A stretch of DNA of 35,473 bases from a virus. Under the pieces are notes generated by a model. The model made no database searches. It saw nothing but the letters and a program-made list of their open reading frames with translations, and was not told the origin of the DNA. Made by a program: the position numbers and the translations under genes. The number at the start of each line of letters is the position of its first letter. Position 1 is the first letter of the stretch. Positions 1 through 33,587 of the stretch are shown in pieces. The stretch covers positions 1 through 35,473 of the IMG/VR virus record IMGVR_UViG_3300028393_000189. The stretch is one strand, 5' to 3'.

Positions 1-144
1 CCGTGGTGTCAAAGAGTTGGGTCTCCCTATCAAGGTTCGGCCCGATCTGCTTGTTGAGGATGTACGATTTCCTCGGCATGACGTAGGTGGCAAGGTTCTG
101 CCACATGCTCATCCAATAAGCGCGGGATGCTTCCAGTGCCGACC
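1..144. repeat. Terminal overlap, copy 1
   Basis: This stretch repeats 35330-35473 with two differences, at position 8 (g here, a at 35337) and position 131 (t here, c at 35460). It shows that the contig closes to a circle of 35,329 bp. Both differences fall at third codon positions of the portal gene and are silent (GAC/GAT for Asp, GAA/GAG for Glu), which fits strain variation in a population better than sequencing error. Confidence 0.95.
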
Positions 145-238
145 AACGGGCAAGGACTGCTGTGGCGACAGAAGTTTTGCTGGTTGCCTCCTTCGGTGTC
201 TTTACACCCGACGAGGCAATTGCTCCTTGTTGCTCCAT
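1..238 (-). CDS. Portal (head-tail connector) protein, N-terminal part
   Basis: This is the first part of the portal gene, whose remainder is at 33813-35473; joining the two through the terminal overlap keeps one frame and gives a 584-aa protein. The ATG at 238 follows the stop of the preceding gene (242-244) by 3 bases and has no Shine-Dalgarno. The N-terminus reads MEQQGAIASSGVKTPKEATS and then runs through an Ala-rich helix (VATAVLARWSALEASRAYW) into the MSMWQNLATYVMPRK segment typical of T7-like connectors. Codons 11-15 (GVKTP) are encoded by an exact copy of the GGTGT-N4-ACACC dyad. The dodecameric portal forms the DNA channel at the capsid vertex. Confidence 0.9.
   Translation of the reverse strand, partial: MEQQGAIASSGVKTPKEATSKTSVATAVLARWSALEASRAYWMSMWQNLATYVMPRKSYILNKQIGPNLDRETQLFDTT
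195..208 (-). promoter_or_regulatory. Dyad site 1, inside portal 5' end
   Basis: In gene sense GGTGT-AAAG-ACACC, a perfect 5+5 dyad. It lies 30-43 bases inside the portal gene and encodes GVKTP. It belongs to the 12-member directional family described in the findings. Its role is unknown; operator, promoter part and RNA hairpin are all open. Confidence 0.7.
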
Positions 239-616: not shown

Positions 617-951
617 GCTGCGTAAATAACCTCGCGTCTATACACCCGCAATCTGTTTTTCCTTTCAAAAGAAACATAGGGCAACCATGTGCTTGACTGA
701 AAGAATGCGGACATCATCTCGCCACTGTAGAGGTAGACATGCCAGCAGTCCGGTTCGTTGTCCCATGTGTTGTGCCATGAGTTCACAATCTTATCTCCCG
801 ATGCGTCATGGGATACGGGTCGCGCCATAAGGAAGAGATCGGGTGTGGAGATTACCAGACCGTGGAGAAGGTGTGCTTCCAGATCCTGTGCAAAAGGTCT
901 GACGCACTCCTCCTGCTCGTAGACTGCTGCGGCTTTAAGAACGGGCCTCAT
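589..951 (-). CDS. Conserved phage protein near terminase (120 aa)
   Basis: The sequence resembles a small protein seen next to the terminase and portal genes in T7-like and other podoviruses: an early segment with an acidic helix (FAQDLEAHLLHGLVISTPDLFLMARPV), a central DCWHVYLYSGEM motif, and a FERKNRLRVYRRE motif near the C-terminus. Its function is not established. The gene follows the large terminase stop by 59 bases and its 3' end overlaps the next gene by 28 bases, with a dyad site inside that end. The ATG at 951 is the only ATG that keeps the whole conserved region. No catalytic motif is apparent. Confidence 0.85.
   Translation of the reverse strand: MRPVLKAAAVYEQEECVRPFAQDLEAHLLHGLVISTPDLFLMARPVSHDASGDKIVNSWHNTWDNEPDCWHVYLYSGEMMSAFFQSSTWLPYVSFERKNRLRVYRREVIYAACLRHSHVS
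633..658 (-). promoter_or_regulatory. Extended dyad site A upstream of the 616 start
   Basis: In gene sense AAACAGATTGCGG followed by GGTGT-ATAG-ACGCG (dyad part 633-646, second half degraded). It lies in the 3' end of the upstream 120-aa gene but out of frame with the GV-coding phase, and ends 16 bases before the ATG at 616. It shares the AAACAGATTG extension with the sites at 3874, 17463, 27921 and 32336. Confidence 0.65.
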
Positions 952-3873: not shown

Positions 3874-3899
3874 GGTGTCAATACACCCGCAATCTGTTT
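3874..3899 (-). promoter_or_regulatory. Extended dyad site B after the loader gene
   Basis: In gene sense AAACAGATTGCGG, then GGTGT-ATTG-ACACC (dyad 3874-3887, exact). The loader stop codon TAA overlaps the first bases of the element. It continues TCGGTAAAATC, similar to the tails of the sites at 17463 and 27921. The next ATG (3826) is 47 bases downstream. Confidence 0.7.
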
Positions 3900-5957: not shown

Positions 5958-6258
5958 TGTTTTCGGGGGTTTGGGGTCGTGTATATACACCAAGGACACT
6001 AGCGTGTCTTTCGGGTCTCTTTGCCTGCCTGTATCCAATTCGGGTGACGATCCCTGCACGGCATGCCGTTAGGAAAAGCGCACCCATGGCGTTAGGTGTT
6101 GGGGGTTCTCCGATCCATTGCCGGACATCCTCCGCGGTAATCTCGTTGCCGTTGGCGACAAGGGTCATGATCACGGAAATACCGGAGTCCCTCCATGACT
6201 GCGGGGTGTTCTTACTCACTCGGTAGACACCGAGGTCTCGTAGGGTGGTGCCGTTCAT
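5950..6258 (-). CDS. Small winged-helix-like hypothetical protein (102 aa)
   Basis: It starts MNGTTLRDLGVYRVSKNTPQ and continues WRDSGISVIMTLVANGNEITAEDVRQWIGEPPTPNAMGALFLTACRAGIVTRIGYRQAKRPERHA. The helix-helix-wing rhythm, the EITAEDVR segment and the PPTPNAMGALF motif match a small domain often seen in phage early regions; I believe it is a winged helix of unknown function. The ATG at 6258 overlaps the upstream stop as ATGA. The last residues include GVYTR, encoded by a dyad site. DNA binding is possible but not shown. Confidence 0.75.
   Translation of the reverse strand: MNGTTLRDLGVYRVSKNTPQSWRDSGISVIMTLVANGNEITAEDVRQWIGEPPTPNAMGALFLTACRAGIVTRIGYRQAKRPERHASVLGVYTRPQTPENND
5978..5991 (-). 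promoter_or_regulatory. Dyad site F before the 5957 start
   Basis: In gene sense GGTGT-ATAT-ACACG. It sits in frame near the 3' end of the 102-aa gene, encoding GVYTR, and ends 20 bases before the next gene's ATG. The intervening ACCCCAAACCCCCGAAAACA contains no Shine-Dalgarno. Confidence 0.6.
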
Positions 6259-7667: not shown

Positions 7668-7781
7668 TTACGGACGGGTTGTTGACCGAATCTTTGGTTC
7701 CGTGCCGGAAAAGGGGCATGGGCGCGGGCGATAACCGACGAAACGCAGGTAGGCTTCCCAGAGGCGCAATAGGTACTTCAT
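7668..7781 (-). CDS. Small protein (37 aa)
   Basis: A short reading, MKYLLRLWEAYLRFVGYRPR then PCPFSGTEPKIRSTTRP, whose ATG overlaps the stop of the 33-aa gene as ATGA. It ends 22 bases before the ERF start. The amphipathic N-terminus and basic end are compatible with a small membrane-surface or regulatory protein. Support is tiling and coupling only. Confidence 0.5.
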   Translation of the reverse strand: MKYLLRLWEAYLRFVGYRPRPCPFSGTEPKIRSTTRP

Positions 7782-7879
7782 CGGGTGAAGCGGGTGATGA
7801 CCCATGTGATGAGTTCCGCTGCCTCCTCGCGGCATAGGACGAGGGTTGCGGTGGTGACGAGTAGGATGAGTGCGATCAT
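7778..7879 (-). CDS. Small single-TM protein (33 aa)
   Basis: The reading MIALILLVTTATLVLCREEA then AELITWVITRFTR has one membrane helix at residues 2-16 and a basic C-terminus. Its ATG lies 16 bases after a dyad site, the same geometry seen before larger genes, and its stop couples to the 37-aa gene (ATGA). That context is the main reason to believe it is translated. The function is unknown. Confidence 0.5.
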   Translation of the reverse strand: MIALILLVTTATLVLCREEAAELITWVITRFTR

Positions 7880-7895
7880 GTGTTGGTTTGGTTGA

Positions 7896-7909
7896 GGCGT
7901 GTACACACC
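7896..7909 (-). promoter_or_regulatory. Dyad site G before the small TM gene
   Basis: In gene sense GGTGT-GTAC-ACGCC, ending 16 bases before the ATG at 7879, with TCAACCAAACCAACAC between. It is just downstream of the HTH gene stop, in the control region, one of three sites within 515 bases. Confidence 0.65.
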
Positions 7910-7947
7910 TTGAGGCAATAAAAAATAAAATGGGGGGGGGTGGGTTG

Positions 7948-8229
7948 TTAGGCAGCCGATATAAGAAGTTGATCAATGTCTGCCCTTGCGATAAGCCTGC
8001 TCCCCATAACCTTGCGGGACTTAAGGACACCTGTCTTCATCATCTTGTAGATGGTTCCTCGTGAGAGATTCATGTGAGTCGCTGCCTCTGCTGGTTTCAA
8101 GAACTTGGGTTCTGTGTACACACCTTGCGACAAAACAGCAAGGAGGTTGCGTTTAAAAGATTCAACGAGTTCCTCGCGTGTGGTAGCAGGGAACTCAATG
8201 TCGATGGGGGTCTTATTGTTTTGGTTCAT
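7948..8229 (-). CDS. Excisionase-type HTH (MerR-like) DNA-binding protein
   Basis: A 93-aa protein. After a 40-residue N-terminal segment comes KFLKPAEAATHMNLSRGTIYKMM and then a short wing VLKSRKVMGSRLIARADIDQLL, the layout of the helix-turn-helix 17/excisionase family. Proteins of this type act as Xis or as small transcription regulators. Position two genes downstream of the integrase fits either role. The dyad site at 8111-8124 lies within this gene (encoding GVYTE, residues 36-40), so autoregulation is possible. The start at 8229 overlaps the upstream gene by 17 bases. Confidence 0.83.
   Translation of the reverse strand: MNQNNKTPIDIEFPATTREELVESFKRNLLAVLSQGVYTEPKFLKPAEAATHMNLSRGTIYKMMKTGVLKSRKVMGSRLIARADIDQLLISAA
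8111..8124 (-). promoter_or_regulatory. Dyad site H inside the HTH gene
   Basis: In gene sense GGTGT-GTAC-ACAGA; the second half is degraded. It is in frame and encodes GVYTE. It shares the GGTGTGTAC core with the sites at 7896 and 8396, making a control-region subfamily. Confidence 0.55.
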
Positions 8230-8377
8230 TCTTTTCGATGTACTTGGTTACTTCTTGTTTTAGGTATGCAGACACAGTCATGCCAGACTGTGCTGCAAGT
8301 TTTTTTAAGACAGACTTCTCCACTGGCGTTAGCCAGAGAGTAGCCTGCTTGTTGCCCTTTTTACGTTGGTTTGGCAT
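8213..8377 (-). CDS. Small RHH-like DNA-binding protein (54 aa)
   Basis: The sequence MPNQRKKGNKQATLWLTPVE then KSVLKKLAAQSGMTVSAYLK and a C-terminal helix fits a ribbon-helix-helix or MobC/Arc-like fold: a basic N-terminus, a short beta strand (QATLWLT) and two helices separated by GMT. I chose the ATG at 8377, which lies 18 bases after a dyad site; the in-frame ATG at 8395 would start within one base of it. It overlaps the HTH gene by 17 bases. In this control region it is a candidate for the factor that binds the dyads. Confidence 0.68.
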   Translation of the reverse strand: MPNQRKKGNKQATLWLTPVEKSVLKKLAAQSGMTVSAYLKQEVTKYIEKNEPKQ

Positions 8378-8382
8378 AGGGG

Positions 8383-8469
8383 TTAAAGTAAGCACGGAGT
8401 GTACACACCTTCAAGATAATTTTTACAAGTTTGACCAACTATGAACCAATACAAGATCAAACTGGACAT
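8383..8469 (-). CDS. Possible leader peptide (28 aa)
   Basis: An ATG 8 bases after the integrase stop opens a short reading, MSSLILYWFIVGQTCKNYLE then GVYTPCLL, ending 5 bases before the RHH-like gene. Its first four codons (MSSL) are identical in DNA to those of another mini-reading before the capsid gene (32332-32376) because both lie in a shared 15-mer. It may be a translated leader or only a by-product of the repeated DNA. Confidence 0.3.
   Translation of the reverse strand: MSSLILYWFIVGQTCKNYLEGVYTPCLL
8396..8409 (-). promoter_or_regulatory. Dyad site I before the RHH-like gene
   Basis: In gene sense GGTGT-GTAC-ACTCC, ending 18 bases before the ATG at 8377; the spacer is GTGCTTACTTTAACCCCT. 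It lies between the integrase and the two small DNA-binding proteins. Confidence 0.65.
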
Positions 8470-8471
8470 CT
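8457..8471 (-). repeat. 15-base repeat shared with the capsid control region
   Basis: AGATGTCCAGTTTGA in gene sense, identical to 32364-32378. Both copies sit just after the end of an upstream gene or terminator and upstream of a dyad site (48 and 15 bases). Confidence 0.7.
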
Positions 8472-8477
8472 TATTTT

Positions 8478-9554
8478 TTAAAGGTTCCACCAGTTTGCAG
8501 CGTCTCGACGGGAAACTGAGTTGGCATACGTTTCGTAAATGAGGCGAGGTGAGGTGTGCCCCATCTCAAACGCGGTCTTCATGGCATCTTGAAAGTGGGC
8601 TAGGTGGTACGAAGCAAACGAATGCCGCAACGCATTTTGCGGAAACCTATCGCTTCCCTGCTTGGCTTCCATGGGCATTCCGCGGTGGCACCTCCATTCC
8701 TTGCTGGCACCCATCAAAGACCCTTGTCCTTTTGGCATATGCCGCAACACTGCGTCCTGCAGGGTCACCGAGCGAGGGCGCATTGCTTTTCCCTGCTTGG
8801 ACTGTTCTTTGGTCACCATGATTTCCTTGTACTCGTGGTCGATGCATTCATAGGACATTTTTGCCATCTCGCAGGTGCGTAATCCTGCAAACCCTCCCAG
8901 CACGATCTTGCATTTGATCCAAGGCTCGACATCCAATTTCAGCAAGTCACCCATTTGCTCCGGCGAGAGGATCTGCTTGCGGGCATCGGCATTGGTCTTG
9001 TCCGGTGCCTCTACTTCTTGAAATGGAGATATTGGCACCAACCTGCGAACATCCCTCCAGTTAAAAAACTGGCGGGTCTGCGAGTAGTGGTTCCAGACAG
9101 TTCGGGTTCCATAGGGTAGACTGTTGAACCATGCCTCAATGTTCTCTGGGTCGATGTCCTTGGGAGACAGGTGACCAAAGGTCTGGGAAAAGCGTAGCAG
9201 GCAGGTCTTGGCCTGCTTGATCCCATCGTCACTCAAAGATCGGGACTCCATGGTGGCAAGGTAGGTATCGACAAGACCCGCGACCTTTTCACTCACCTTG
9301 TCCTTGGAAACGCGAGTTTTGACTGCCTGCAGGGTGTGCTGTTTGGTGTGTTTTGCTATCCATGCAAAGGCACTTGTTTGGTCAGAAAAGAACTTTCTGC
9401 CCCTGTTTCCTGCGTTCATGTCTGGTGGAAGGTCTACTGCCCACCGTTTGCGAGATTTGTAAAACCGCGGGATCAGTCTTTTGGATCGTTGGTAGTCCGA
9501 TGCATTGGTCAGTGCCATATCGTGCCACATTGCCAATTTGTTCGTACTTGTCAA
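8478..9554 (-). CDS. int: Tyrosine recombinase (integrase)
   Basis: Catalyses site-specific integration and excision of the phage. A core-binding helical domain spans about residues 85-175 and the catalytic domain follows: GGFAGLRTCEM with R226, the NALRHSFASYH box with R310, the MGH motif with H333, and the nucleophile Y343 in IYETYAN. The first His of the HxxR box is Asn (N307), a substitution I associate with integrases of Verrucomicrobiota-like bacteria. The longest reading uses TTG at 9554; ATG at 9530 or 9518 are alternatives, none with a clear Shine-Dalgarno. attP lies about 60-150 bases upstream. Length is 358 aa. Confidence 0.95.
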   Translation of the reverse strand: MTSTNKLAMWHDMALTNASDYQRSKRLIPRFYKSRKRWAVDLPPDMNAGNRGRKFFSDQTSAFAWIAKHTKQHTLQAVKTRVSKDKVSEKVAGLVDTYLATMESRSLSDDGIKQAKTCLLRFSQTFGHLSPKDIDPENIEAWFNSLPYGTRTVWNHYSQTRQFFNWRDVRRLVPISPFQEVEAPDKTNADARKQILSPEQMGDLLKLDVEPWIKCKIVLGGFAGLRTCEMAKMSYECIDHEYKEIMVTKEQSKQGKAMRPRSVTLQDAVLRHMPKGQGSLMGASKEWRCHRGMPMEAKQGSDRFPQNALRHSFASYHLAHFQDAMKTAFEMGHTSPRLIYETYANSVSRRDAANWWNL

Positions 9555-9611: not shown

Positions 9612-9667
9612 TCTACACTGTAGAGTGGCGGTGAGGGAGGGATTCGAACCCTCTCTTTCTACACTGT
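9612..9667. other. attP: attP core region with tRNA-Ser 3' end
   Basis: The minus strand of 9626-9653 reads GAGGGTTCGAATCCCTC then CCTCACC-G-CCA: a T-arm with a 5-bp stem and TTCGAAT loop, acceptor 3' strand, discriminator G and encoded CCA. E. coli tRNA-Ser(GGA) ends the same way apart from T-stem bases. No 5' part of a tRNA is present, so this is the crossover core borrowed from a host tRNA-Ser gene. Direct repeats TCTACACTGT flank it at 9612-9621 and 9658-9667, 46 bases apart, as candidate integrase arm or Xis sites. It lies immediately upstream of the integrase. Confidence 0.88.
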
Positions 9668-9710: not shown

Positions 9711-9733
9711 GAGGGTTTTGTACCCTCCCTCAC
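9711..9733 (+). repeat. Inverted, loop-altered copy of the tRNA T-arm
   Basis: GAGGGTT-TTGTA-CCCTCCCTCAC on the plus strand matches the minus-strand attP segment (9631-9653) at 18 of 23 bases; all five differences lie in the T-loop. The stem is kept, so it forms a hairpin (gggagggt/accctccc, 9709-9729). It overlaps the stop codon of the GNAT gene and may also serve as a terminator; on the plus strand it is followed by a T run. Confidence 0.7.
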
Positions 9734-10170
9734 AATTTTTTTTGGAAATAGTACGCTTTGTTTCCGGCATATTTTGACTCCGGTATATATAACCGAAACC
9801 CGCAAGCGATGAGGGAGTTTGCACTGGCAAGATTCCAATCGAGCACATAGGTCACGATCTGCTTGAACCCGTTTCGTTTTGCCATAGCGATGCGGGCGCG
9901 GATCAGTCTTTTCTGCATGCCTTGACCGCGGTGCTTCGTCAGCACCCCGCTGCGGATCATAAAGCAGAGTCCCTTATTGCTTTCGTGGTGGCAGGGCCGG
10001 AGTCCGGCAAAGGCAATGCCCTTGCCTCGGTAGTCTCGGATAATCCACCACCACCCACCCTCCGGCTCGACCGCTACGTCCTCACCAAAAAGGGTCTTGT
10101 CGAGCTTGAGAACGTCCTCCCGTACCCGCGCAGGCAGATGTTCTGGTCGAGCCTCGCAGCGCAGGATCAT
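9730..10170 (-). CDS. GNAT-family N-acetyltransferase
   Basis: A 146-aa protein with the GNAT pattern: a WWWIIRDYRGKGIAFAGLRP strand pair, the acetyl-CoA-binding motif A VLTKHRGQGMQKRLIRARI (R/Q-x-x-G-x-G type), then FKQIVTYVLDWNLASANSLIACGFRLY, where the asparagine helix and GF motif close the fold. The acceptor is unknown; phage GNATs may modify host proteins or small molecules. It overlaps the winged-helix gene start-stop as ATGA and sits next to attP, a usual place for accessory genes expressed from prophages. Confidence 0.88.
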   Translation of the reverse strand: MILRCEARPEHLPARVREDVLKLDKTLFGEDVAVEPEGGWWWIIRDYRGKGIAFAGLRPCHHESNKGLCFMIRSGVLTKHRGQGMQKRLIRARIAMAKRNGFKQIVTYVLDWNLASANSLIACGFRLYIPESKYAGNKAYYFQKKL

Positions 10171-10427
10171 TTTACGATTCGGTAGTGGGGCACCAAGTAG
10201 GTTGCTTTGTGACCAGTTTTGATCCGGTACTTGCGTTGCTCGATGCTACCTTCTTCCAACGCCGCGGATAATAACCTGCGAGTCTGGCTTTCAGAACGAC
10301 CCGTCTTTTTGGCAATGGTGCGACAAGATTCCCAATCTTTCGGCACCTCGTCGGTTTTGAGTGATCCGGCTTGAACCAGTATGGCAAGCCACTCGTTTGC
10401 GGTCTTGGTCACAATGGTAGCCTCCAC
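10167..10427 (-). CDS. Winged-helix DNA-binding protein (86 aa)
   Basis: The sequence TANEWLAILVQAGSLKTDEV then WESCRTIAKKTGRSESQTRRLLSAALEEGSIEQRKYRIKTGHKATYLVPHYRIVK has a helix-turn-helix core (RTIAKKTGRSESQTRRLL) and a basic beta wing, the usual winged-helix layout. It could be a regulator of its accessory operon or of phage genes; it is the best candidate for a transcription factor outside the int region. It overlaps the metallophosphoesterase gene by 19 bases and the GNAT gene by 4. Confidence 0.72.
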   Translation of the reverse strand: MEATIVTKTANEWLAILVQAGSLKTDEVPKDWESCRTIAKKTGRSESQTRRLLSAALEEGSIEQRKYRIKTGHKATYLVPHYRIVK

Positions 10428-17455: not shown

Positions 17456-17509
17456 TTAGCGTGGTGTCAATACACCCACAATCTGTTTTCTGGTCATCTT
17501 GGGGGGCAT
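17456..17509 (-). CDS. Possible leader peptide (17 aa) before fibre gene
   Basis: An ATG directly after the giant gene's stop (TAAATG) opens MPPKMTRKQIVGVLTPR and stops 11 bases before the fibre ATG. The second half is encoded by the dyad element, so it may be a coincidence of that DNA. Two other mini-readings (8383-8469, 32332-32376) share this arrangement. Confidence 0.3.
   Translation of the reverse strand: MPPKMTRKQIVGVLTPR
17463..17488 (-). promoter_or_regulatory. Extended dyad site C before the fibre gene
   Basis: In gene sense AAACAGATTGTGG then GGTGT-ATTG-ACACC (dyad 17463-17476, exact). It ends 18 bases before the fibre ATG; the spacer ACGCTAAAACCTTTACCG has no Shine-Dalgarno. It lies between the giant virion protein and the fibre gene and so may drive or tune host-range gene expression. 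Confidence 0.72.
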
Positions 17510-20500
17510 TTACTCGGTGGAAGATTCGGGTTCTGCTGCAGGAACCCCATGCAGTCCATGGAATCGTCGTAATATCTCTTTCCTGCGCTCAACCGCTGCC
17601 TTGTAGCGTTGCTGGTCATCCTCATTGAGAGATTTGTAGAACTCCTTATCGTGTTTTGCGCTGCCTGTGAATGGATGGTTCACACTGGATCGGAACCCTG
17701 TGGCTACATCGTGTTTTTTCATGCCTCCTTTGACGAGTTTGTCGATTTCGTGCTGGGCTTTTTCAGCATCACCATCCTCTAGTGCATAGCGCAGTTGCTG
17801 GTATTTGGATACAGGGTAACTACCCTTTTGAACATCCTCTGGATAGTTTGCTTTTACCCAATCATGGGCCATTGGGTACACTTTGGTGATTGGAGAGTAT
17901 CGATGGATCTGAACACCACCGGATGCCAAAACCTGCTCCCACCATGAAAGGTCATGGGCGCGACCAGTTGCCGTCCATTCACTGATTAGTGGTTGAAATG
18001 CCATGGGAACAACACTTGCCATAATGTCGGCAATAGCATCTCCAACACTGGTGCGCTCCCCTCGGTAGTTTACACCAAAAATTCCTTCCTGCACAAACTT
18101 ACCAAACATTGGGGATATGCGTCCTCCAATGAATGCGGTGGGTTGCTTGACCAGTTTATACATGTCTTCGGGCACTGATCGAAGTCCGTAATACTTATTT
18201 CCAACTCGGATCTCAAAAGGGTGATCCAGTTCAACGTCATCGTTGAGTAGTGCTTTAAAGATACTGGCACCCACAAACTGAACAATTGCTAGGAAACCAA
18301 GTGCTTGTAATTGTTCTGCGCCGACTTTTCCACCCATAGCACCTTTGATTGCTTGACCAACAAAACGGGATCGAGCCTCCAAGAAATCCGGTGCCAGTAA
18401 GATTAACTGCAATGCATGTCGTATTGTTGGGTTATGACCCATGTCGGTATAGTTCAAGTGACCGTATGCTGCATTGGCCTGCCTCGCGGTGAGGTTTTTA
18501 ACCTGCCACTCACTGACTTTGCCAGATGCCAATTCTGCCTTGTACCGATCCTTGTTACGCTCAAGCATATGGACATAGGTCTGAAACTTGAGTGCAGGGA
18601 TGTATTGCGAAAACAGGTAGTGTTGGTAGGCATCCACGGCATCTGCTGCCTTGGTGCTCATGCCCCATCCTATTTTTCTGAGTCCTAGCGTGATGAGGTT
18701 GGAACTATTGTCGCCAACACCCTCCATGAATAGGGACTGACTGAGACGATCATGCGCCAGCATGAGACCGTGTTCCGCGGCATCCCTTTGCGCCGGATCG
18801 CGCATATCAATTTGTTTAAGTCCAAAGAACGGGTTAATCCTGTGACCGATTGCATGAATCCCTTCTTGCACTTGGTGGAAAGGGGACAGGGAAAGCATTG
18901 TTCCCTTGAAATAACTTTGCAGCTTGATAGCCCCACCAATGGTGGACTTGGTCAAGTTTAGGAACGGGTTCTCACCGCGGGCATTGATCCACTTGGAAAT
19001 TGCTGACGAGGAAAGTGCGTTGTTGAGATGGGATGCAACCTCTGGGTGGACGGCAAGGTCTCCAAGGGTGAGCACCATATTCCCGTCAGCATTCTTTCCG
19101 GCAAACTTCCAATCGTGGAGTGCTGGTTGGTCAAGCGTCTTGTAGTCTGAAGTGCCTTCATCGGATGCATCGGGGTAGACAAGATGCGTCGTGCCTTTAT
19201 CGGTCACCGTATCCTTGCCCATTCCCCGCGGAGAAACTATTGGGCGACCATCACTTGCTTTCAATCCGCGGAGTTCCTCAACGAACCTGCGCGAGTTGAT
19301 CGCGTTGTTCATGTCGTTCATGTAAAGACCTAGCAGCTTGGCAATGTCCTTGGTTTCGGGTTCGTACCCGTTTTGTTCTCCCTCGTGGTAGGTATCAAAA
19401 GTGCGTTCCTGCGAAAACTTAAAGAACTCGTCAAGTCTCTTGGGTGTAGAACCCGAAGGTGCTTGAGGTTCTGTCTTGTAGACATGGGGGACGTAGTTAT
19501 CTCTGTATCCCATTTCAATCCCATATGCCTCTGCCCTCTTCTTGAGAACGTCAAATGTCTGTTGGATTTTGCCTGCTAGTTTTTCCTGCTCCGGCGTGAA
19601 CTTCAATGCTGCCTCGTATCCGGCTTTGAGTTTTGGATCGGTGGTAGCATTGGCCCGTAATTTTAGCAGGGACTTATCACCACCTGCCTCAATCCAGTTG
19701 GTGATTCCTTCGCGGGTTTCTTTCTGTGGAGCAACTTTTTCAATGTCATGCTGCGCCCTTTCAATGTCATTGGTGGATCGTTGGGAACGTGCCGACCACT
19801 TGAGTAGGGATTTCTTGAATGGGCTATCCGCAGGGAGATCGCGCATCGTTCCCTTGAGACGTTTAAGTGACTCCGCAGTTTTTTCGCGGAGGGTAGGGGG
19901 TGGTGGAGTGACACCCCTAATGATAGGGGTAATGTTGATTGATCCTGCCTCCGATGCAAACCTAGAACCCTTGTAGGTATCCCACAGTTTCTGAAGCACC
20001 CCAGCAACATGGTTGCCGAGGTCGGAAAGCATCTGCTTGGCAAAGTCTACGAACTCGACACCTTTTTTGTAGATGTCTTCACCGTAGTAATAGATGTCCT
20101 TGAGGATAGTAGGGTCAATGAACCCGCCTTGGGACTTTAGGCGAGACCGGATGTTGGCTGCCTGTACGGTCTTCGATGGGACTCCACCCGCCTGTTTTAC
20201 TTCCTCGCCATGGGCAGCGAGGATGGAATCACGCTGCTCTTCGGTTACTCCGAGGGCGCGGAGTTGGGCTTTGTTTGCTGATCCCAACTCCTCGATAAAT
20301 CTACTAGCTCCTCTGGAAAGTCGTGCTTCACCATCAGAAGGAGATTCTGAAGACCGTCCTCTGTCCACTCCGACTTCCGCGCTGCCAGTTCCACTAGCAG
20401 TTTCGCTTGCTTGTCCCCTAGCTGCCTCAACTGTTCTGGTTCCCACGCTTTCGACATGAGGGTCTCTAAATTGGATGCTGGCTGGCTCATACTTCATGTA

Positions 20501-23500
20501 TACCACAGTGGGCATCTCTTGTCCATCCCAACCCTGCTGTTTCCAAACATCCTTTAGGGCATTGACTTTGGCTTTGCGTTTGGCTGCGGTGTCGCCAAGG
20601 TCTTTATGATTTGGATCAAACGGGTGTTCGGCATAGACCGCAAACCCATGAACTCCGTAACTAGTTGGAAGTATGCCATTGGGTTTGTCTTTTGTTTTAA
20701 CAGAATAGCAATCCAAGTGAGTAGCGCCCTCTTGTAATGCCTTGGTCATCATAGGATGCAGCATTCCTCCTATGCCCGTGTTATTCATGACACCAACCAA
20801 CTCTCGCCCGCCATCTTCACGATCCTTAATAGCAAACCAGACATCATTGTCTGTCAGTTGATAGACTATTATCTTCCCAGCCTTTCTGTCCTCATTCAGT
20901 TTCTTTGGGTCGTACTTGGTTAGGGTCTCTGCTGCATCATTCCGAGAAACGGCATGAACGAACTCTGCTAATCCCTTGCCATTGCCCTTATCATAAACTG
21001 TCCAATTATCTGTTAGGGCATCTCGGAAAAGGCGGGCCTGCCCAACATGTGTTTCGATGGATTGAATGCTATTGATTTCTGCATGCACCTTATCAGTGAG
21101 AACCTGTGCCTTGGTTACTGTGCCCTCTGGTGTGTTTGGATATCGACCACCCCACGCATAGTCTGGTCTGATGTTGTATTTTGTCTGGAAGTAATCGAGG
21201 GATTTTTGTGCCTCTTGCCGTTGCTCCTCGGTCTTTGCAGTTTCTAGTGCTTGCTTTGCCATTTGTATTCCCTCTGCCTTTCTGCGCTCGACCTCTGTGC
21301 GAAGCTGGGCAAGACCATCTGGCAATGCTACATCGAATGGGACGGGGTTTTTGAAATATGAAACCACATAACTTGGTAGAACTGTATCGTACGAGAGATT
21401 GGTAATTCCCCCAAAGTCCTCTGCAGAAAGGTCGTTGCGAAGGTTCCAATTGCCGTTTTCATCCTGTGTAGCAAGCCGATCAATATCCACCTTGAGCAAA
21501 CTGGTGATGCTTCCTACTTCCGATCCGAGCAGGGACGGTTCTGTAGTGTGTCTAATCGTTCGCTCGATATTTGGAACCCCAAGTTCCTGCGCCTGTTTAC
21601 TTTTCAGCACATCGGCAATTGCTGCACGGTCTTCAAACGACGATTTGGAGTATTGATCAACAATGTCGGCATGCGTAAACCCAACAAAAGAAGGAACTTT
21701 CTTGCGGATTAACTCATCCACCTTTGCCTCGTTCTCTTTGGTAATGATCCCCTTTTTAACGGCATCTCGGATATCTCCGACAAGGACGCTGCTCGTGTTG
21801 TTATTAGACTTGTGCGTATCGACTGCCATTGTAAACGGAGCAACGAGTGCAAAGTGTTTCCCGTTTTTATCCGTTTGAATAACTCCATGCTTCTCCAACA
21901 TTGTAAGGATGGTCTGGATTCCCATTCTTTTGGACTTCCAAGCATCCGTTACAACTCCATCCCCCTTATGCTTGAGCAATGAATGGATTGAACCTCCCTC
22001 AAGGGGAACACCGCGGAGCGTTCCACCACCAAGTCGATCTGCCATAATAGGCAAGTATGGCATGCCCTTGTATTCATCTGGGATCGTGCTAGGTATCCCC
22101 AGCTTTTCGGCATAAGCAGTTGCGTTGATCAACTTCTCTACGGGCCTTGCTTGGGCAATTTCTGCAATCTGATCCGAAGCAGATTTTTTCTTTTTGGTAT
22201 TAACTTTTGCAGCAAGATCATCTGCCTTGCCACCAATCGCGCCAGTGTTGCCAAGTGACTTGTAGGCATTCCAAATTTTGGAAAGCACATCCTTAACCTT
22301 GTCTCCAAAATCCGAGATCATGCGCTTTGACCAATCCGCAAATGTCATACCCTTTTCGTAAATCGCTTTCCCGTACTCGGATAGTTTTTCGTAGATAGGG
22401 GTAAAATCCACAAATGCGCTTTCTCCACTTGCACGGTTTTTTAAGAAATCATTGATCTCCTGCTGGGCTTGAGACATTGCATCGGACTGTTCTTGCTTTG
22501 TTGTTTCAGATACAAGTTCATCGGGAAGAGTGTCTTCTGGTTGGACTTCGGGGATTTCTGCTGGTGTTTTTTCGGTATCTGACACCGTCTTTGCATCCTC
22601 GGTAGTAGAATCAGTCCAATCATTTCCTTCACTGGTCTGCTTTGATTCTTTGGAAAGCATGTGATCCTGCATTGCCATCGTGTAGGCATCCTGTGCTGCA
22701 TCTTTGTCGGAGAATGTGACCGTGTGCTCCTTGCCATTTGAATCCATGGTAATGACATGGAAGGTGCCATCAAAATTGTTGACCAGTTTGGGAGCATCTG
22801 GTGCTTGAATCGCATCAACGATCTTTTGGTTGTTGTCCTTTTGTAGCTGCTTGCCAAGTTCGATGTCTTCCTTGGTGCGTTCATTCCAACCGTCCTTAAT
22901 GGCTTGCACCCTTTCGCTTTCGTGGAGTTCTGCGATACGAGTTGCTTCCTCGTGTGAAAATCCTTGTTCCTTGAGTGCCATGGGGTCGGCTGCATTCTTT
23001 GCCGCCTGCTTTTCTACCTCTGGATCAACCTTTCCACCGCGTGATAAAACGTGTCCGGCTGCACCTAAAATACCCAACTCCGCAAACATGTAGGGCATTT
23101 CTTTAAGAATGCCCCAATACTCCTCTGCAAAATCCCGTCCGGCATTGATGTCTTTGTTCCACGCATTTTCCAGTTGTGCGTAGAGGGTTTTGACACCTTC
23201 CGCGGTGGACAGGAAGACCGTAGCACCTGCCATGTGTTTGAGTGCCCCGACAACGGTGGGAGCCACTTTACCAAGCAAAAGGATCCCCTTGGTTCCGATA
23301 GCAGTTGATACTGCTGCAGGAACAGTTGATCTTTCATACGCTTCGCGGGCAGACATGTTGGGGTTGTCCTGCATGCGTTGCAGTGTCTGGTTGGCAATTT
23401 CGTTCATGCCATAGGCAGCAGTACCGATTGCCGGAACAATGAAAGGGGCAACCTGCGGGATCATTCCAGAAATCCCATTGGCGATATGGGAAACAGCACC

Positions 23501-24649
23501 CTTCCACCCGTAATGAACGGGTGCCGCATCAAAGGTAGCTTGCGAGAATTGGCGAACCTTTTGGGCTAAAAGGATGTCGTTGTATTGGTCGGAGAGTTTT
23601 TGTTTCTCCTCTGGATCGACTGCTGCGTCACGACGAAATTCTAGGTCGAGCAGGTTGTGGACATCGTCGTAGCGGTTAAAGCTCTCGGCACTGCTGGTAA
23701 ATGATTTTTGCAGGGCATACATTTCATCAATGGCACCTCCCTTGCTCTTGCCGTACACGGATTTAAAATACTGCTGGGCAATAGAAAGAACTGCAGTTTG
23801 ATGCTCTGGTGTTAGTCCTTTAATAAACTGCTTGGGGTCAATCTGCTGCTGAAACTCCGGTGATGCGTTTTCTGTGGCACCGTCCACGGGTTTGGTCTTT
23901 CCGGCAACCGCATCAACAAACTTTTTTGCCAGTTGCCCATCTGGAGTGTTGAGTGCCTGCTGGATCGGTTTATAGACCGAGTTGAAGGCATTGAGCCTGT
24001 CTGACTCTGGAAGTCCCTTAAGGGCATCCTCGTGCGTTTTTTGCCAATTCTGAAATCGGGCGAGGGAAGGCACCGACATTCCCTTGTCTGCATCCTCAAA
24101 GGCATCTCGGATTGCCTGCGACTTGAGGTTGTCGATGGCAACAGTCCTAGCGTCATGTTTTTCAAAAAGACCCTGCAGGTTTTTGCGAAAAGTTCCGACA
24201 TCATCAGATGGGTCAAAACCGTAGTTTTTTTCTAGTGCTGCTTGGTAAAAACCAAAATTATCCACCACATCGTTGAGTGGGGTTCCCGTGAGGTGCGACA
24301 CCGCGGCAAACGCAGCAACTTGGTCACGATATTCCTGCGAATCGGTAGTCTTTTGGGAATTAGCAACTGCTTGATCGGCCTGCCCTCCGAGGTTTATTGG
24401 ATCGTATAGCATTGCCTTTACACGAGATTCTTGCTCGGTGTAGGCAGGGGTATGCGTTAGGTCAGTGCCAAATGGGTTGAAATTTCCACCATTGTCTTGG
24501 ATTGCTTGATTAACGGGTGCCGCGGGAGCTTCAGAAAGATCATTAAATTTGTTTACCAGTTGCTGTTGCTGAAGGTCGTCGGGACTTGTAATTGCGTGGA
24601 TGCTCTGCAGTTCTGATGACTGAGGCAAATAGGTGAGAGACTCAGCCAT
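17510..24649 (-). CDS. Giant ejected virion protein (internal core protein D-like, 2379 aa)
   Basis: About 20% of the genome, in the place of T7 gp16. Residues 1-380 are Asn/Gln-rich helical sequence; about 385-545 contain Ala/Gly-rich hydrophobic stretches (IANGISGMIPQVAPFIVPAI, LLLGKVAPTVVGALKHMAGA) that may insert in membranes. Two related modules occur at about 745-800 (YGKAIYEKGMTFADWSKRMI) and 1506-1560 (YGEDIYKKGVEFVDFAKQML), flanking a long central region. Residues about 1280-1350 look like an acetyltransferase-type fold (GRELVGVMNNTGIGG, ALQEGATHLDC, YGVHGFAVYAEHP). The last third (about 1590-2379) resembles large polyvalent phage proteins. It is probably injected with the DNA. No transglycosylase motif is evident. 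The start has GGAG 12 bases upstream. Confidence 0.85.
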   Translation of the reverse strand: MAESLTYLPQSSELQSIHAITSPDDLQQQQLVNKFNDLSEAPAAPVNQAIQDNGGNFNPFGTDLTHTPAYTEQESRVKAMLYDPINLGGQADQAVANSQKTTDSQEYRDQVAAFAAVSHLTGTPLNDVVDNFGFYQAALEKNYGFDPSDDVGTFRKNLQGLFEKHDARTVAIDNLKSQAIRDAFEDADKGMSVPSLARFQNWQKTHEDALKGLPESDRLNAFNSVYKPIQQALNTPDGQLAKKFVDAVAGKTKPVDGATENASPEFQQQIDPKQFIKGLTPEHQTAVLSIAQQYFKSVYGKSKGGAIDEMYALQKSFTSSAESFNRYDDVHNLLDLEFRRDAAVDPEEKQKLSDQYNDILLAQKVRQFSQATFDAAPVHYGWKGAVSHIANGISGMIPQVAPFIVPAIGTAAYGMNEIANQTLQRMQDNPNMSAREAYERSTVPAAVSTAIGTKGILLLGKVAPTVVGALKHMAGATVFLSTAEGVKTLYAQLENAWNKDINAGRDFAEEYWGILKEMPYMFAELGILGAAGHVLSRGGKVDPEVEKQAAKNAADPMALKEQGFSHEEATRIAELHESERVQAIKDGWNERTKEDIELGKQLQKDNNQKIVDAIQAPDAPKLVNNFDGTFHVITMDSNGKEHTVTFSDKDAAQDAYTMAMQDHMLSKESKQTSEGNDWTDSTTEDAKTVSDTEKTPAEIPEVQPEDTLPDELVSETTKQEQSDAMSQAQQEINDFLKNRASGESAFVDFTPIYEKLSEYGKAIYEKGMTFADWSKRMISDFGDKVKDVLSKIWNAYKSLGNTGAIGGKADDLAAKVNTKKKKSASDQIAEIAQARPVEKLINATAYAEKLGIPSTIPDEYKGMPYLPIMADRLGGGTLRGVPLEGGSIHSLLKHKGDGVVTDAWKSKRMGIQTILTMLEKHGVIQTDKNGKHFALVAPFTMAVDTHKSNNNTSSVLVGDIRDAVKKGIITKENEAKVDELIRKKVPSFVGFTHADIVDQYSKSSFEDRAAIADVLKSKQAQELGVPNIERTIRHTTEPSLLGSEVGSITSLLKVDIDRLATQDENGNWNLRNDLSAEDFGGITNLSYDTVLPSYVVSYFKNPVPFDVALPDGLAQLRTEVERRKAEGIQMAKQALETAKTEEQRQEAQKSLDYFQTKYNIRPDYAWGGRYPNTPEGTVTKAQVLTDKVHAEINSIQSIETHVGQARLFRDALTDNWTVYDKGNGKGLAEFVHAVSRNDAAETLTKYDPKKLNEDRKAGKIIVYQLTDNDVWFAIKDREDGGRELVGVMNNTGIGGMLHPMMTKALQEGATHLDCYSVKTKDKPNGILPTSYGVHGFAVYAEHPFDPNHKDLGDTAAKRKAKVNALKDVWKQQGWDGQEMPTVVYMKYEPASIQFRDPHVESVGTRTVEAARGQASETASGTGSAEVGVDRGRSSESPSDGEARLSRGASRFIEELGSANKAQLRALGVTEEQRDSILAAHGEEVKQAGGVPSKTVQAANIRSRLKSQGGFIDPTILKDIYYYGEDIYKKGVEFVDFAKQMLSDLGNHVAGVLQKLWDTYKGSRFASEAGSINITPIIRGVTPPPPTLREKTAESLKRLKGTMRDLPADSPFKKSLLKWSARSQRSTNDIERAQHDIEKVAPQKETREGITNWIEAGGDKSLLKLRANATTDPKLKAGYEAALKFTPEQEKLAGKIQQTFDVLKKRAEAYGIEMGYRDNYVPHVYKTEPQAPSGSTPKRLDEFFKFSQERTFDTYHEGEQNGYEPETKDIAKLLGLYMNDMNNAINSRRFVEELRGLKASDGRPIVSPRGMGKDTVTDKGTTHLVYPDASDEGTSDYKTLDQPALHDWKFAGKNADGNMVLTLGDLAVHPEVASHLNNALSSSAISKWINARGENPFLNLTKSTIGGAIKLQSYFKGTMLSLSPFHQVQEGIHAIGHRINPFFGLKQIDMRDPAQRDAAEHGLMLAHDRLSQSLFMEGVGDNSSNLITLGLRKIGWGMSTKAADAVDAYQHYLFSQYIPALKFQTYVHMLERNKDRYKAELASGKVSEWQVKNLTARQANAAYGHLNYTDMGHNPTIRHALQLILLAPDFLEARSRFVGQAIKGAMGGKVGAEQLQALGFLAIVQFVGASIFKALLNDDVELDHPFEIRVGNKYYGLRSVPEDMYKLVKQPTAFIGGRISPMFGKFVQEGIFGVNYRGERTSVGDAIADIMASVVPMAFQPLISEWTATGRAHDLSWWEQVLASGGVQIHRYSPITKVYPMAHDWVKANYPEDVQKGSYPVSKYQQLRYALEDGDAEKAQHEIDKLVKGGMKKHDVATGFRSSVNHPFTGSAKHDKEFYKSLNEDDQQRYKAAVERRKEILRRFHGLHGVPAAEPESSTE

Positions 24650-24655
24650 GAATCG

Positions 24656-26620
24656 TTATGCTCCAGTTACTTTTTTAAAACCAACAACCGCTAAATCACT
24701 GCGCTTATCTGGCCCGTCTGGAGAATAAAAATCAAACCGACCAGAGTAATTACGCAGTCCCAATTTCCTTGCTTGCTCTGGTGTGGCACCTCGGTCGTGC
24801 CAAATCTTTACCACTTTTTCGCCATTTGATAGGGTCAACTCTACTTTGTCGTTGGGTTTTATTCCAGAATCGCGCAGTTTTTGTTCAATATCGTAAGAAG
24901 TGCCAAAACTTTGGCCTGCAATTAAGTGTTTTGTAAAAGCACCAATCCCAGCAGAAGAGTTTGCGTCTGGAGTTGTGTCACCTTTGTAACCATAAGAAGT
25001 AACGCGACCAATAGGTGTCGAAAAACTCATGGTAGTTTCATTTTGTGGTAATTCTGAACTTGATGCTGATGCAGGAGCAGATGGGTGAAAGAACTTCCAT
25101 ATAGCACCGTGTTGTTCTTTTTTCTTAAATAGCTCATTAGCATCGGATGCTTGAATCCGTTTCTGCATGGCAGATTCTAGCCTTTGATAAGCCTCGTGCG
25201 ATGTTGCAGGAGGGCCGGATGGGTAGGTTGTATTGCCAATTTTCCCGCCCTTCATGACTTGATCTTTTACACTGTTGGCTGCATCTGCTGCTTTGGTGGA
25301 GGCTTGTGATTCCAGACTGTCAGTTGGACTTTCAGTGTAATCGCCAAACATCTGTCCTTTGAGGTATGCGTTGACACCCCTTGAAAGGTTGGTCGAAACT
25401 TCCGTCTCTGGCTTGAGCCTCCCGTTATTTCCGACCATTTCAGCAAACTTCTCATCAAGTTGTTTGATCAAAACAGGTGCCGTTGCATCCGAGACGTTGC
25501 CAGTGATCCAAGTTTTTCGGTCGAGAAGTTCCTTGGAAGCGTTGTTCAAGTCCTTGGGAAACGTGTCCACAAGGTTCTGTCCTGCTTTATCGTAGACAAC
25601 CGCTTCGTCTCCAGTGCGTGTGTATGCTGCCCTCATGCGTAGCATCTGCTTCTGCTCCTCCGGCGCGGATTGAAACTCTGGGTATTGCTCTAATTGTTTT
25701 GGGTCAATGATGTGGTTGGCTTGAATCTTTAAGAGCATCGGATCCACATTTTTGGCCCAGATGTTTTGGTAATGAATGGACTCACCGATCTTTGCCATCT
25801 TGACCAAGTTTTCGGGACTGAGGTCTGGATACTTTTTGAGCACTTCACCGGACTCTCCAGCAGCTTTGACACTTTGGTATAACTCTCCTTTGGGCGAATC
25901 GTTTGCAAACTCTGCAAGCAAACCATCCTTTTGCTCACCAATCTTGAACATGGATTCATATCGTTGCCCATCCTGTGGGGTGATTGCTCCGGTTTGGACG
26001 GCATTGTCGCGAACTTTGCGCGCTTCCGTGTAATTCTTTCCCTGCGTTAAGTTGTCAATGATGGCAGTCTGCGTGGAAGCGAACTCCTGCTGCTGGAAAG
26101 CGTGTGCCGTGTTTGCGGTGGAAGCTAAACCCTTGGTGAAGGCATTGGTTGCCTCTCCCATGTAGGCTTGCTGCTGCATGGGGGTCATTCCTGCCATGAA
26201 GCGTCTGCCTCCATCGGTGATTCTCAACCACTCGGCGGGTTGTTGCGCCACAGAAATCTGGTTCTTGGGATTGTTGACCCGTTCATTGAACTCATTCTCG
26301 ATGTTGAGTTTGTTGATGTAGAAGTTCTGCATGCCAGTGACTTCTGCCTCTTTGAGTTGTGCGGTCTTTTCTCCCTTGGCAACGTAGAAAGCACCGGATG
26401 CCACGTTGCCCGCTGCGGAAATCATGTCGCTTCCAAAACCTGCCTGTGCGCGACCAACGGCACCCGCGGCCTGCGGGTTCACCATCAGTCCCTCAAACCC
26501 CTTGTTGATTGCGGCTTTTGCCTCTCCACCCACCACATCCCCCGTGTATTGCGGGTTCATGGTGTAGTTGGCTACCGCCTGCGGTGCATTGGGAATCTCG
26601 GAGAGCTTGATGTTTGCCAT
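24656..26620 (-). CDS. Internal virion protein C-like with C-terminal double-psi barrel domain (654 aa)
   Basis: Most of the chain is helical and Ala/Gln-rich (QAAGAVGRAQAGFGSDMISA, IQANHIIDPKQLEQYPEFQS), as in phage internal core proteins. The last ~110 residues differ: GRVTSYGYKGDTTPDANSSA, AGQSFGTSYDIEQKLRDSGI, KVVKIWHDRG and GRFDFYSPDGP resemble an RlpA/3D double-psi beta-barrel, a fold found in wall-cutting enzymes, so a peptidoglycan-active tip is possible. That portion is lower in GC (39 of 100 bases at 25021-25120 against 64 at 26401-26500), consistent with domain replacement. The ATG at 26620 follows the upstream stop by one base; the longer start (26653) is out of frame with that gene. 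Confidence 0.82.
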   Translation of the reverse strand: MANIKLSEIPNAPQAVANYTMNPQYTGDVVGGEAKAAINKGFEGLMVNPQAAGAVGRAQAGFGSDMISAAGNVASGAFYVAKGEKTAQLKEAEVTGMQNFYINKLNIENEFNERVNNPKNQISVAQQPAEWLRITDGGRRFMAGMTPMQQQAYMGEATNAFTKGLASTANTAHAFQQQEFASTQTAIIDNLTQGKNYTEARKVRDNAVQTGAITPQDGQRYESMFKIGEQKDGLLAEFANDSPKGELYQSVKAAGESGEVLKKYPDLSPENLVKMAKIGESIHYQNIWAKNVDPMLLKIQANHIIDPKQLEQYPEFQSAPEEQKQMLRMRAAYTRTGDEAVVYDKAGQNLVDTFPKDLNNASKELLDRKTWITGNVSDATAPVLIKQLDEKFAEMVGNNGRLKPETEVSTNLSRGVNAYLKGQMFGDYTESPTDSLESQASTKAADAANSVKDQVMKGGKIGNTTYPSGPPATSHEAYQRLESAMQKRIQASDANELFKKKEQHGAIWKFFHPSAPASASSSELPQNETTMSFSTPIGRVTSYGYKGDTTPDANSSAGIGAFTKHLIAGQSFGTSYDIEQKLRDSGIKPNDKVELTLSNGEKVVKIWHDRGATPEQARKLGLRNYSGRFDFYSPDGPDKRSDLAVVGFKKVTGA

Positions 26621-26621
26621 A

Positions 26622-27920: not shown

Positions 27921-27946
27921 GGTGAATATACACCTCAATCTGTTAT
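27921..27946 (-). promoter_or_regulatory. Extended dyad site D after tail tubular B
   Basis: In gene sense TAACAGATTGA then GGTGT-ATAT-TCACC (dyad 27921-27934). The first TAA is the stop codon of the tail tubular B gene. It ends 19 bases before the cupin-like ATG and its tail (CGTGATAAAACC) resembles those of the sites at 3874 and 17463. Confidence 0.68.
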
Positions 27947-32331: not shown

Positions 32332-32376
32332 CTATGGTGTCAATACACCATACGCAATCTGTTTCAAACTGGACAT
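32332..32376 (-). CDS. Possible leader peptide (14 aa) before capsid
   Basis: ATG within the shared 15-mer opens MSSLKQIAYGVLTP and a TAG stop. It covers the extended dyad exactly. Translation of such a leader could couple ribosome movement to the hairpin, but the reading may only reflect the repeated DNA. Confidence 0.3.
   Translation of the reverse strand: MSSLKQIAYGVLTP
32336..32364 (-). promoter_or_regulatory. Extended dyad site E upstream of capsid
   Basis: In gene sense AAACAGATTGCGTAT, then GGTGT-ATTG-ACACC (dyad 32336-32349, exact). Compared with sites A-C it has a few bases inserted between the extension and the dyad. The 15-mer repeat (32364-32378) adjoins its upstream edge. It is 164 bases from the capsid ATG, the only extended copy far from a start. 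Confidence 0.72.
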
Positions 32377-33402: not shown

Positions 33403-33587
33403 TCGGTTTCATGGGGTTGGTTGTTTACTGCTTCGGAAAGAGGTGGCAATACACCTCCGGCCAAAAACTCGGCATGCTCAACCGGAGAAAAGTTCTCCTT
33501 GTGCCATGCGATAAAGAGTGGGTTCTCCCGAAGGGTTTCGGGGGTGAGTTCAGTCTTTCCTTGCGGTCGTTTTCTTTGGTGTTTCAT
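33399..33587 (-). CDS. Small protein (62 aa)
   Basis: Reading MKHQRKRPQGKTELTPETLR, then ENPLFIAWHKENFSPVEHAE and FLAGGVLPPLSEAVNNQPHE. I do not recognise it. The position between the Bbp19-like and scaffold genes suggests an assembly role. It overlaps the previous gene by 38 bases, large for this genome, and its stop overlaps the scaffold start. GVLPP is encoded by a dyad copy. Confidence 0.6.
   Translation of the reverse strand: MKHQRKRPQGKTELTPETLRENPLFIAWHKENFSPVEHAEFLAGGVLPPLSEAVNNQPHETE
33442..33455 (-). promoter_or_regulatory. Dyad site K upstream of scaffold
   Basis: In gene sense GGTGT-ATTG-CCACC, inside the 62-aa gene in frame (GVLPP) and 39 bases before the scaffold ATG at 33402. 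Confidence 0.6.

What the first reader, a model, noticed from the sequence alone, without database searches (positions are those of the whole stretch)
7778..8477. Temperate genome on one strand with no visible repressor
A temperate phage with integrase and attP normally has a divergent repressor/Cro switch. Here every gene is on the minus strand, and the control region holds only an RHH-like 54-aa protein, an excisionase-type HTH protein and three GGTGTGTAC dyads within 515 bases. Repression may work by sites scattered along one transcription direction, like mycobacteriophage stoperators, rather than at one switch.
Basis: inference. Interest (0 to 1): 0.7.

Follow-up and report, generated by a model that had tools for sequence, protein, structure and literature searches.

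The report
Phage-wide operators for a tiny repressor
This temperate phage, with all recognisable genes on one strand, seems to be silenced not at one switch but at about ten copies of one short mirror-image DNA site spread along its genome, probably bound by a 54-amino-acid repressor; the principle is known from phages with unrelated repressors but was not found described for this protein fold.

Summary
In detail: every recognisable gene is on the minus strand of a circularly complete ~35.3 kb podovirus genome, and three GTGTACAC dyads lie at 7896-8409 around a 54-aa ribbon-helix-helix (RHH) gene and a xis gene, next to int. They are only the visible part. The true motif is GGTGT-N4-ACACC: the most over-represented 5-bp inverted repeat of the window (rank 1 of 9,216 arm/spacer combinations; 4 exact copies, 0.04 expected), recurring at conserved places genome-wide. 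All 13 near-complete syntenic genomes (window included) encode the RHH and carry dyads. Three distantly related or unrelated viral contigs with a homologous RHH carry them too (2-5 exact copies; spacer 4, 3 or 2); five genomes without the RHH have none. RHH is the only window gene found in every dyad-bearing genome. Dyads inside genes fall in all three frames and fix codons, so selection acts on the DNA. Best reading: the RHH protein is the missing repressor, autoregulated, acting at operators spread over lytic promoters and inside genes. 'Scattered repression' is supported; 'no visible repressor' is probably wrong; a block to elongation is untested. Precedents: L5 stoperators and SPbeta MrpR/SPBRE, with unrelated repressors.

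The parts
8213..8377 (-). 54-aa ribbon-helix-helix protein, proposed master repressor
   Evidence: Pfam NikA-like above cut-off; AF2 and Foldseek RHH fold; only gene shared by all dyad-bearing genomes
8396..8409 (-). Dyad P, GGTGTGTACACTCC, in the RHH gene's own promoter region
8111..8124 (-). Dyad B, GGTGTGTACACAGA, inside the xis N-terminal part
   Evidence: position kept in relatives
7896..7909 (-). Dyad A, GGTGTGTACACGCC, before the small-ORF/Erf operon
   Evidence: position kept in relatives
7948..8229 (-). 93-aa excisionase-type HTH_17 protein
8478..9554 (-). tyrosine integrase
   Evidence: phrog_1 E 4e-25, Pfam Phage_integrase
9626..9652 (-). putative attP core, tRNA-Ser-like 3' end
195..208 (-). 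Dyad GGTGTAAAGACACC inside the portal gene N-terminus (circle closed)
633..646 (-). Dyad-like GGTGTATAGACGCG after AACAGATTG, 16 nt before the 242-616 gene; TTGCGG-17-TATTTA
3874..3887 (-). Dyad GGTGTATTGACACC in TTGCGG-17-TAAAAT
5978..5991 (-). Dyad GGTGTATATACACG, 20 nt before the 5640-5957 gene, overlapping the end of the preceding gene
17463..17476 (-). Dyad GGTGTATTGACACC in TTGTGG-17-TAAAAC, 18 nt before the tail fibre gene
27921..27934 (-). Dyad GGTGTATATTCACC in TTGAGG-17-TAAAAC
32336..32349 (-). Dyad GGTGTATTGACACC upstream of the major capsid gene
33442..33455 (-). Dyad GGTGTATTGCCACC, 39 nt before the 32449-33402 gene

Best explanation
The 54-aa RHH protein (8213-8377, minus) is the phage's master repressor. 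By analogy with other RHH repressors it would bind as dimers to the dyad GGTGT-N4-ACACC. Its own promoter region holds a dyad with an intact upstream half and a weaker downstream half, which would give autoregulation at lower affinity. Perfect or near-perfect dyads lie (a) in the spacer or -10 region of sigma70-like promoters of lytic operons (3874, 17463, 27921, 32336 and probably 633), where bound protein would stop initiation, and (b) inside or at the edges of genes (xis N-terminus 8111, before the Erf operon 7896, portal N-terminus 195, 5978, 33442). Because the repressor gene is transcribed towards xis and the lytic genes, class (b) sites downstream of it may stop read-through of its transcript. 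Shown: the sites, their statistics, conservation, DNA-level constraint, RHH fold and co-occurrence. Inferred: binding, repression, role in lysogeny, roadblock.
For: Rank 1 of 9,216 inverted-repeat arm/spacer combinations in the window, G001, G007, G005 and G006, and in G011, G016, G017, G020, G021, G023. Zero exact copies (spacers 2-4) in five genomes without the RHH: HTVC010P, HTVC203P, MW202510, P26218, G027. RHH is the only window gene with a homologue in all dyad-bearing genomes, including G005 and G006, which share no other gene with the window at E 1e-3. Dyad just before the RHH start in many lineages, e.g. G024 TTGACA-GGTGTATATACTTCTAC-TAGTTT. Eight backbone sites identical between window and G007 (112/112 bases) while flanks are 88% identical. 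11 of 11 GVxTP peptides use GGT...ACA codons (background 0.26 x 0.18), and coding dyads fall in all three frames (11/8/5). AACAGATTG occurs 6 times on the minus strand (0.14 expected), 5 of them directly before dyads. Intergenic dyads score higher as sigma70 promoters than random intergenic positions (p 0.023). RHH fold: AF2 model, Foldseek top hits ParG, NikA, CopG, Arc. Single-mismatch sites are broken in the downstream half 24 times against 8 (p 0.007).
Against: No binding or expression data. No lysogen or cultured host is known. Coding-region dyads do not score as promoters (p 0.10), so promoter occlusion cannot explain all of them. G020/G021/G023 have no dyad just before their RHH genes. 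G004 has one exact GGTGT dyad and instead repeats GGTGG arms. Single-mismatch counts include about one chance match per genome, and orthologous sites are not independent. A xis-type HTH gene follows the RHH gene in most lineages (also G002 and G005) and could bind some sites; only G006 lacks it.
Confidence: 0.68

Rival explanations
1. The dyads are promoter elements read by a phage-modified or virion RNA polymerase (as N4 hairpin promoters or T7 promoters), and the RHH gene simply has such a promoter too.
For: Several sites lie 16-20 nt before a gene start, and each can be drawn as a 5-bp hairpin. Two giant virion-region ORFs (2379 and 665 aa) have no Pfam or PDB match.
Against: No RNA polymerase among the PHROG or Pfam hits. 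Unrelated G005/G006 share only the RHH with the window. Dyads lie inside coding genes in three frames, some deep in a 3,000-aa gene. Five window sites already sit in TTG-N17-TAAAAT type promoters.
Confidence: 0.1
2. RHH binds the dyads but not as a lysogeny repressor: it is a lytic timing regulator (Arc/Cro-like), or it organises or partitions DNA (ParG/MatP-like).
For: P22 Arc acts in lytic growth (own knowledge); ParG and MatP are RHH proteins that appear in the fold and sequence searches.
Against: Sites sit before capsid and tail genes as well as early genes; no ParA/ParF partner was found among the hits; the gene always lies between int and xis in this group.
Confidence: 0.15
3. The Xis/HTH_17 protein (7948-8229) or a host protein binds the dyads and is the repressor.
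For: A xis-type gene follows the RHH gene in nearly all genomes, and dyads flank both.
Against: G006 has RHH plus dyads (spacer 3) and no xis-type neighbour; Xis has no tblastn homologue in G002, G005 or G006. Podoviruses without RHH lack dyads, although they may have other hosts.
Confidence: 0.07

Closest known systems
Stoperators of mycobacteriophage L5 / Cluster A (gp71-type repressor)
   Same: More than twenty repressor sites over the genome, in promoters and short intergenic spaces, oriented with transcription (PMC9283540); here about ten sites, partly in promoters, partly elsewhere, with the upstream half kept intact more often.
   Different: L5 sites are asymmetric 13-mers bound by a monomer with two DNA-binding domains; here the site is a 14-bp dyad and the candidate protein is a 54-aa RHH. 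Many sites in the group lie inside genes. Elongation block untested.
SPbeta MrpR repressor and SPBRE repeated element
   Same: A repeated element at many phage promoters, first noticed in silico, bound by one master repressor that maintains lysogeny (PMC10516654).
   Different: MrpR is a tyrosine-recombinase-fold protein with a 15-bp motif; here an RHH protein and a palindrome.
P22 Arc and Mnt (RHH phage repressors)
   Same: Same fold and size class (Arc structures among the top matches; PHROG 'Arc-like repressor'); from own knowledge Arc binds between -35 and -10 of Pant.
   Different: Arc and Mnt act on one control region (own knowledge); here sites are spread over the whole genome. Sequence similarity to Arc is very weak (PDB profile E 0.66).
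phiC31 repressor and its conserved inverted repeats (own knowledge; no paper found)
   Same: Inverted-repeat operators spread over a temperate phage genome.
   Different: Different repressor and host; not compared by sequence here.

Membership tests
RHH (Arc/MetJ/CopG) DNA-binding proteins | strand followed by two helices, fold matching Arc/CopG | tested here: met
   AF2 pLDDT 80, helices 18-30 and 35-50; Foldseek ParG, NikA, CopG, Arc, prob 0.95-1.0, TM about 0.65-0.72; CopG by profile E 6e-4. The dimer and its strand pairing were not modelled.
RHH (Arc/MetJ/CopG) DNA-binding proteins | binds a short inverted-repeat operator, usually in its own promoter | tested here: inconclusive
   Dyad (<=2 mismatches) just before the own start in 10 of 16 family members, half-site in two more; binding not testable.
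Stoperator systems (L5 type) | multiple repressor sites across the genome | tested here: met
   for the sites; that they are repressor sites is inferred
Stoperator systems (L5 type) | asymmetric 13-bp site, orientation fixed to transcription | tested here: not met
   Site is a 14-bp dyad; only an orientation bias is seen (24 against 8 broken downstream halves; purine at -1 in 94%).
Stoperator systems (L5 type) | repressor halts elongation at non-promoter sites | not testable with these tools
   needs transcription assays
lambda-type CI/Cro divergent switch | divergently transcribed repressor and anti-repressor with a shared operator region | tested here: not met
   All recognisable genes on one strand, no CI-type match.
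SPbeta MrpR/SPBRE | repressor with tyrosine-recombinase fold | tested here: not met
   Candidate is RHH.

The most novel reading that the evidence does not exclude
A ribbon-helix-helix protein runs a genome-wide stoperator system: dimers on dyads inside genes physically stop transcription elongation in the prophage, so that a phage with all genes, including its repressor, on one strand can express the repressor without reading into its lytic genes; lineages tune the dyad spacer (2, 3 or 4 bp) together with their RHH protein.
Probability: 0.35. Interest if true: 0.85.

Novelty: new variant of a known kind. Interest (0 to 1): 0.7.

Why it matters
It gives a testable answer to how podoviruses that carry an integrase but no recognisable CI-type repressor could keep lysogeny. 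It would add another, unrelated protein fold to those used for genome-wide scattered repression, with a very small protein, a simple readable site and a conserved layout in at least 13 syntenic genomes. The motif offers a signature for temperate lifestyle in this uncultured group, and the in-gene sites, kept at the cost of codon choice, make the initiation-versus-elongation question directly testable.

Tried and rejected
GGTGTGTAC with mismatches as the motif: not significant. Chance: rejected by Markov simulations and by ranking against all arms and spacers. Peptide-level selection for GVxTP: rejected by codon use and by the other frames. Intrinsic terminators: no run of T after the window dyads, and broken downstream halves would spoil a hairpin. 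tRNA-Ser attB as a host clue: the 27-nt core is in at least 119 genome stretches of several phyla, no host inferred. RHH relatives in bacterial genomes: none found with the MPNQRKKG pattern. RHH in cultured phages: no match. 86-aa winged HTH 10167-10427 as repressor: present only in the two closest relatives. Site 19902: inside the 2379-aa gene, not among the G007 sites, probably chance. My automatic hexamer scoring of RHH promoters mis-sliced the -35 box; the hexamers quoted were read directly. Searches failed on wrong coordinates.

Full report
Observation. The window is a virus record of 35,473 bases whose ends overlap by 144 nt with two mismatches, so it is a complete circle of about 35.33 kb. 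All genes with a PHROG or Pfam match are on the minus strand: int, RHH, xis, Erf, a replication initiation protein, a DnaC-like loader, terminase, portal, capsid, tail and lysis genes. The ten plus-strand ORFs examined have no convincing Pfam match. The three dyads are real: GTGTACAC occurs only at 7899, 8114 and 8399. The closest relative (G001) keeps all three.

The wider motif. Distant homologues of the 54-aa RHH protein (MPNQRKKGKK family) have GGTGT-N3/4-ACACC just before their own start codon. Searching the window for GGTGT-N4-ACACC gives 4 exact copies (0.04 expected) and 10 with at most one mismatch (1.4 expected). Among all 1,024 five-base arms and nine spacers it ranks first in the window. 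Sites: 195, 3874, 5978, 7896, 8396, 17463, 27921, 32336, 33442, plus 633 and 8111 with two mismatches. Site 19902 is probably chance.

Relatives. A capsid search and whole-record retrieval gave, with the window, 13 near-complete genomes with the order int-RHH-xis-(Erf)-DnaC-terL-portal-capsid, all in one direction; Erf has no tblastn match in G020, G021 and G023. Every near-complete record (34-39 kb) of this group encodes the RHH; fragments without it are 31 kb or shorter, while the more distant G027 (44.7 kb, capsid 35% identical) has no convincing RHH and no exact dyad. The group has 1-7 exact dyads per genome. Distantly related or unrelated records with the RHH have the same arms, some with other spacers: G005 spacer 2 (5 exact), G006 spacer 3 (3 exact), G002 spacer 4 (2 exact). 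Five genomes without the RHH have none. tblastn of all window proteins shows that RHH alone is shared by every dyad-bearing genome. In G006 no xis-type gene follows the RHH, which points to the RHH rather than Xis as the binder.

Selection on DNA. Between the window and G007 eight backbone sites are identical in 112 of 112 bases while flanks are 88% identical; int, RHH and xis in G007 are a diverged cassette (about 35-46% protein identity) with its own dyads. Across nine genomes exact dyads are intergenic 17 times and coding 24 times, in all three frames (11/8/5); all 11 GVxTP peptides in the predicted proteins use the GGT...ACA codons that make the dyad, against a background of 0.26 x 0.18 (orthologues are not independent).

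Layout at the lysogeny module. Site P lies 16-36 nt before the RHH start, upstream half intact and downstream half often degraded; site B lies in the xis N-terminus; site A lies before the Erf operon. P is present in most of the group except G020, G021 and G023; G014 and G016 keep only a half-site there; B and A are not always both present. In several genomes a -35-like box abuts P and a -10-like box follows 17 bp later, e.g. TTGACA-GGTGTATATACTTCTAC-TAGTTT in G024 (read).

Promoter context in the window. Five sites share AACAGATTG directly upstream. Read on the minus strand, 3874 is TTGCGG-17-TAAAAT, 17463 TTGTGG-17-TAAAAC, 27921 TTGAGG-17-TAAAAC, 32336 TTGCGT-17-TAGAAA and 633 TTGCGG-17-TATTTA. 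AACAGATTG occurs six times on this strand and never on the other. With an E. coli matrix, intergenic dyads score above random intergenic positions (p 0.023) but coding dyads do not (p 0.10). So part of the sites look like promoter operators, and part, such as the portal N-terminus (195, inside the portal gene when the circle is closed), do not.

Protein. The AF2 model shows helices 18-30 and 35-50 and matches ParG, NikA, CopG and Arc; a profile finds CopG at 6e-4. PHROG labels are Arc-like repressor / transcriptional repressor.

Mechanism. The best reading is a small autoregulated repressor acting at many operators. The one-strand layout puts the repressor gene upstream of xis and the lytic genes, so sites B and A downstream of it are where a roadblock would be useful; that step is inference.

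Comparison. L5 stoperators (PMC9283540) and SPbeta MrpR/SPBRE (PMC10516654) work alike in outline, with different proteins and sites. The paper searches run here did not surface an RHH protein with genome-wide operators; this is a limited open-access library. No cultured relative is close: capsid at most about 33% identical to Pelagibacter-type and similar podoviruses.

Noticed in passing
window 1-144 and 35330-35473: Ends overlap by 144 nt with 2 mismatches, so the record is a complete circle although classed as linear.
   Followed up: yes
window 7948-9554 against G007: Int, RHH and xis form a cassette that differs strongly between two phages whose backbone proteins are mostly 80-99% identical, while the backbone dyads are unchanged; suggests module exchange with kept operator specificity.
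   Followed up: partly
G002, G020, G021: Two tandem RHH genes before xis.
   Followed up: partly
G004 (L026, L027): Operators may have shifted to GGTGG-N4-CCACC arms (5 exact, second-ranked inverted repeat).
   Followed up: partly
window 33967: Sixth AACAGATTG copy, inside the portal gene, with no dyad found after it.
   Followed up: no
window 10167-10427: 86-aa winged-HTH-like protein next to a GNAT acetyltransferase, only in the two closest relatives.
   Followed up: partly
window 9631-9653 and 9711-9733: A 23-nt inverted repeat couples the tRNA-Ser-like attP end with the end of the acetyltransferase gene.
   Followed up: no
A and B sites of several relatives: A conserved TTTTGCCCAAA-like stretch precedes GGTGT at sites A and B without a matching -10; function unknown.
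   Followed up: partly
window 17510-24649 and 24656-26653: 2379-aa and 665-aa virion-region ORFs without Pfam or PDB match.
   Followed up: partly
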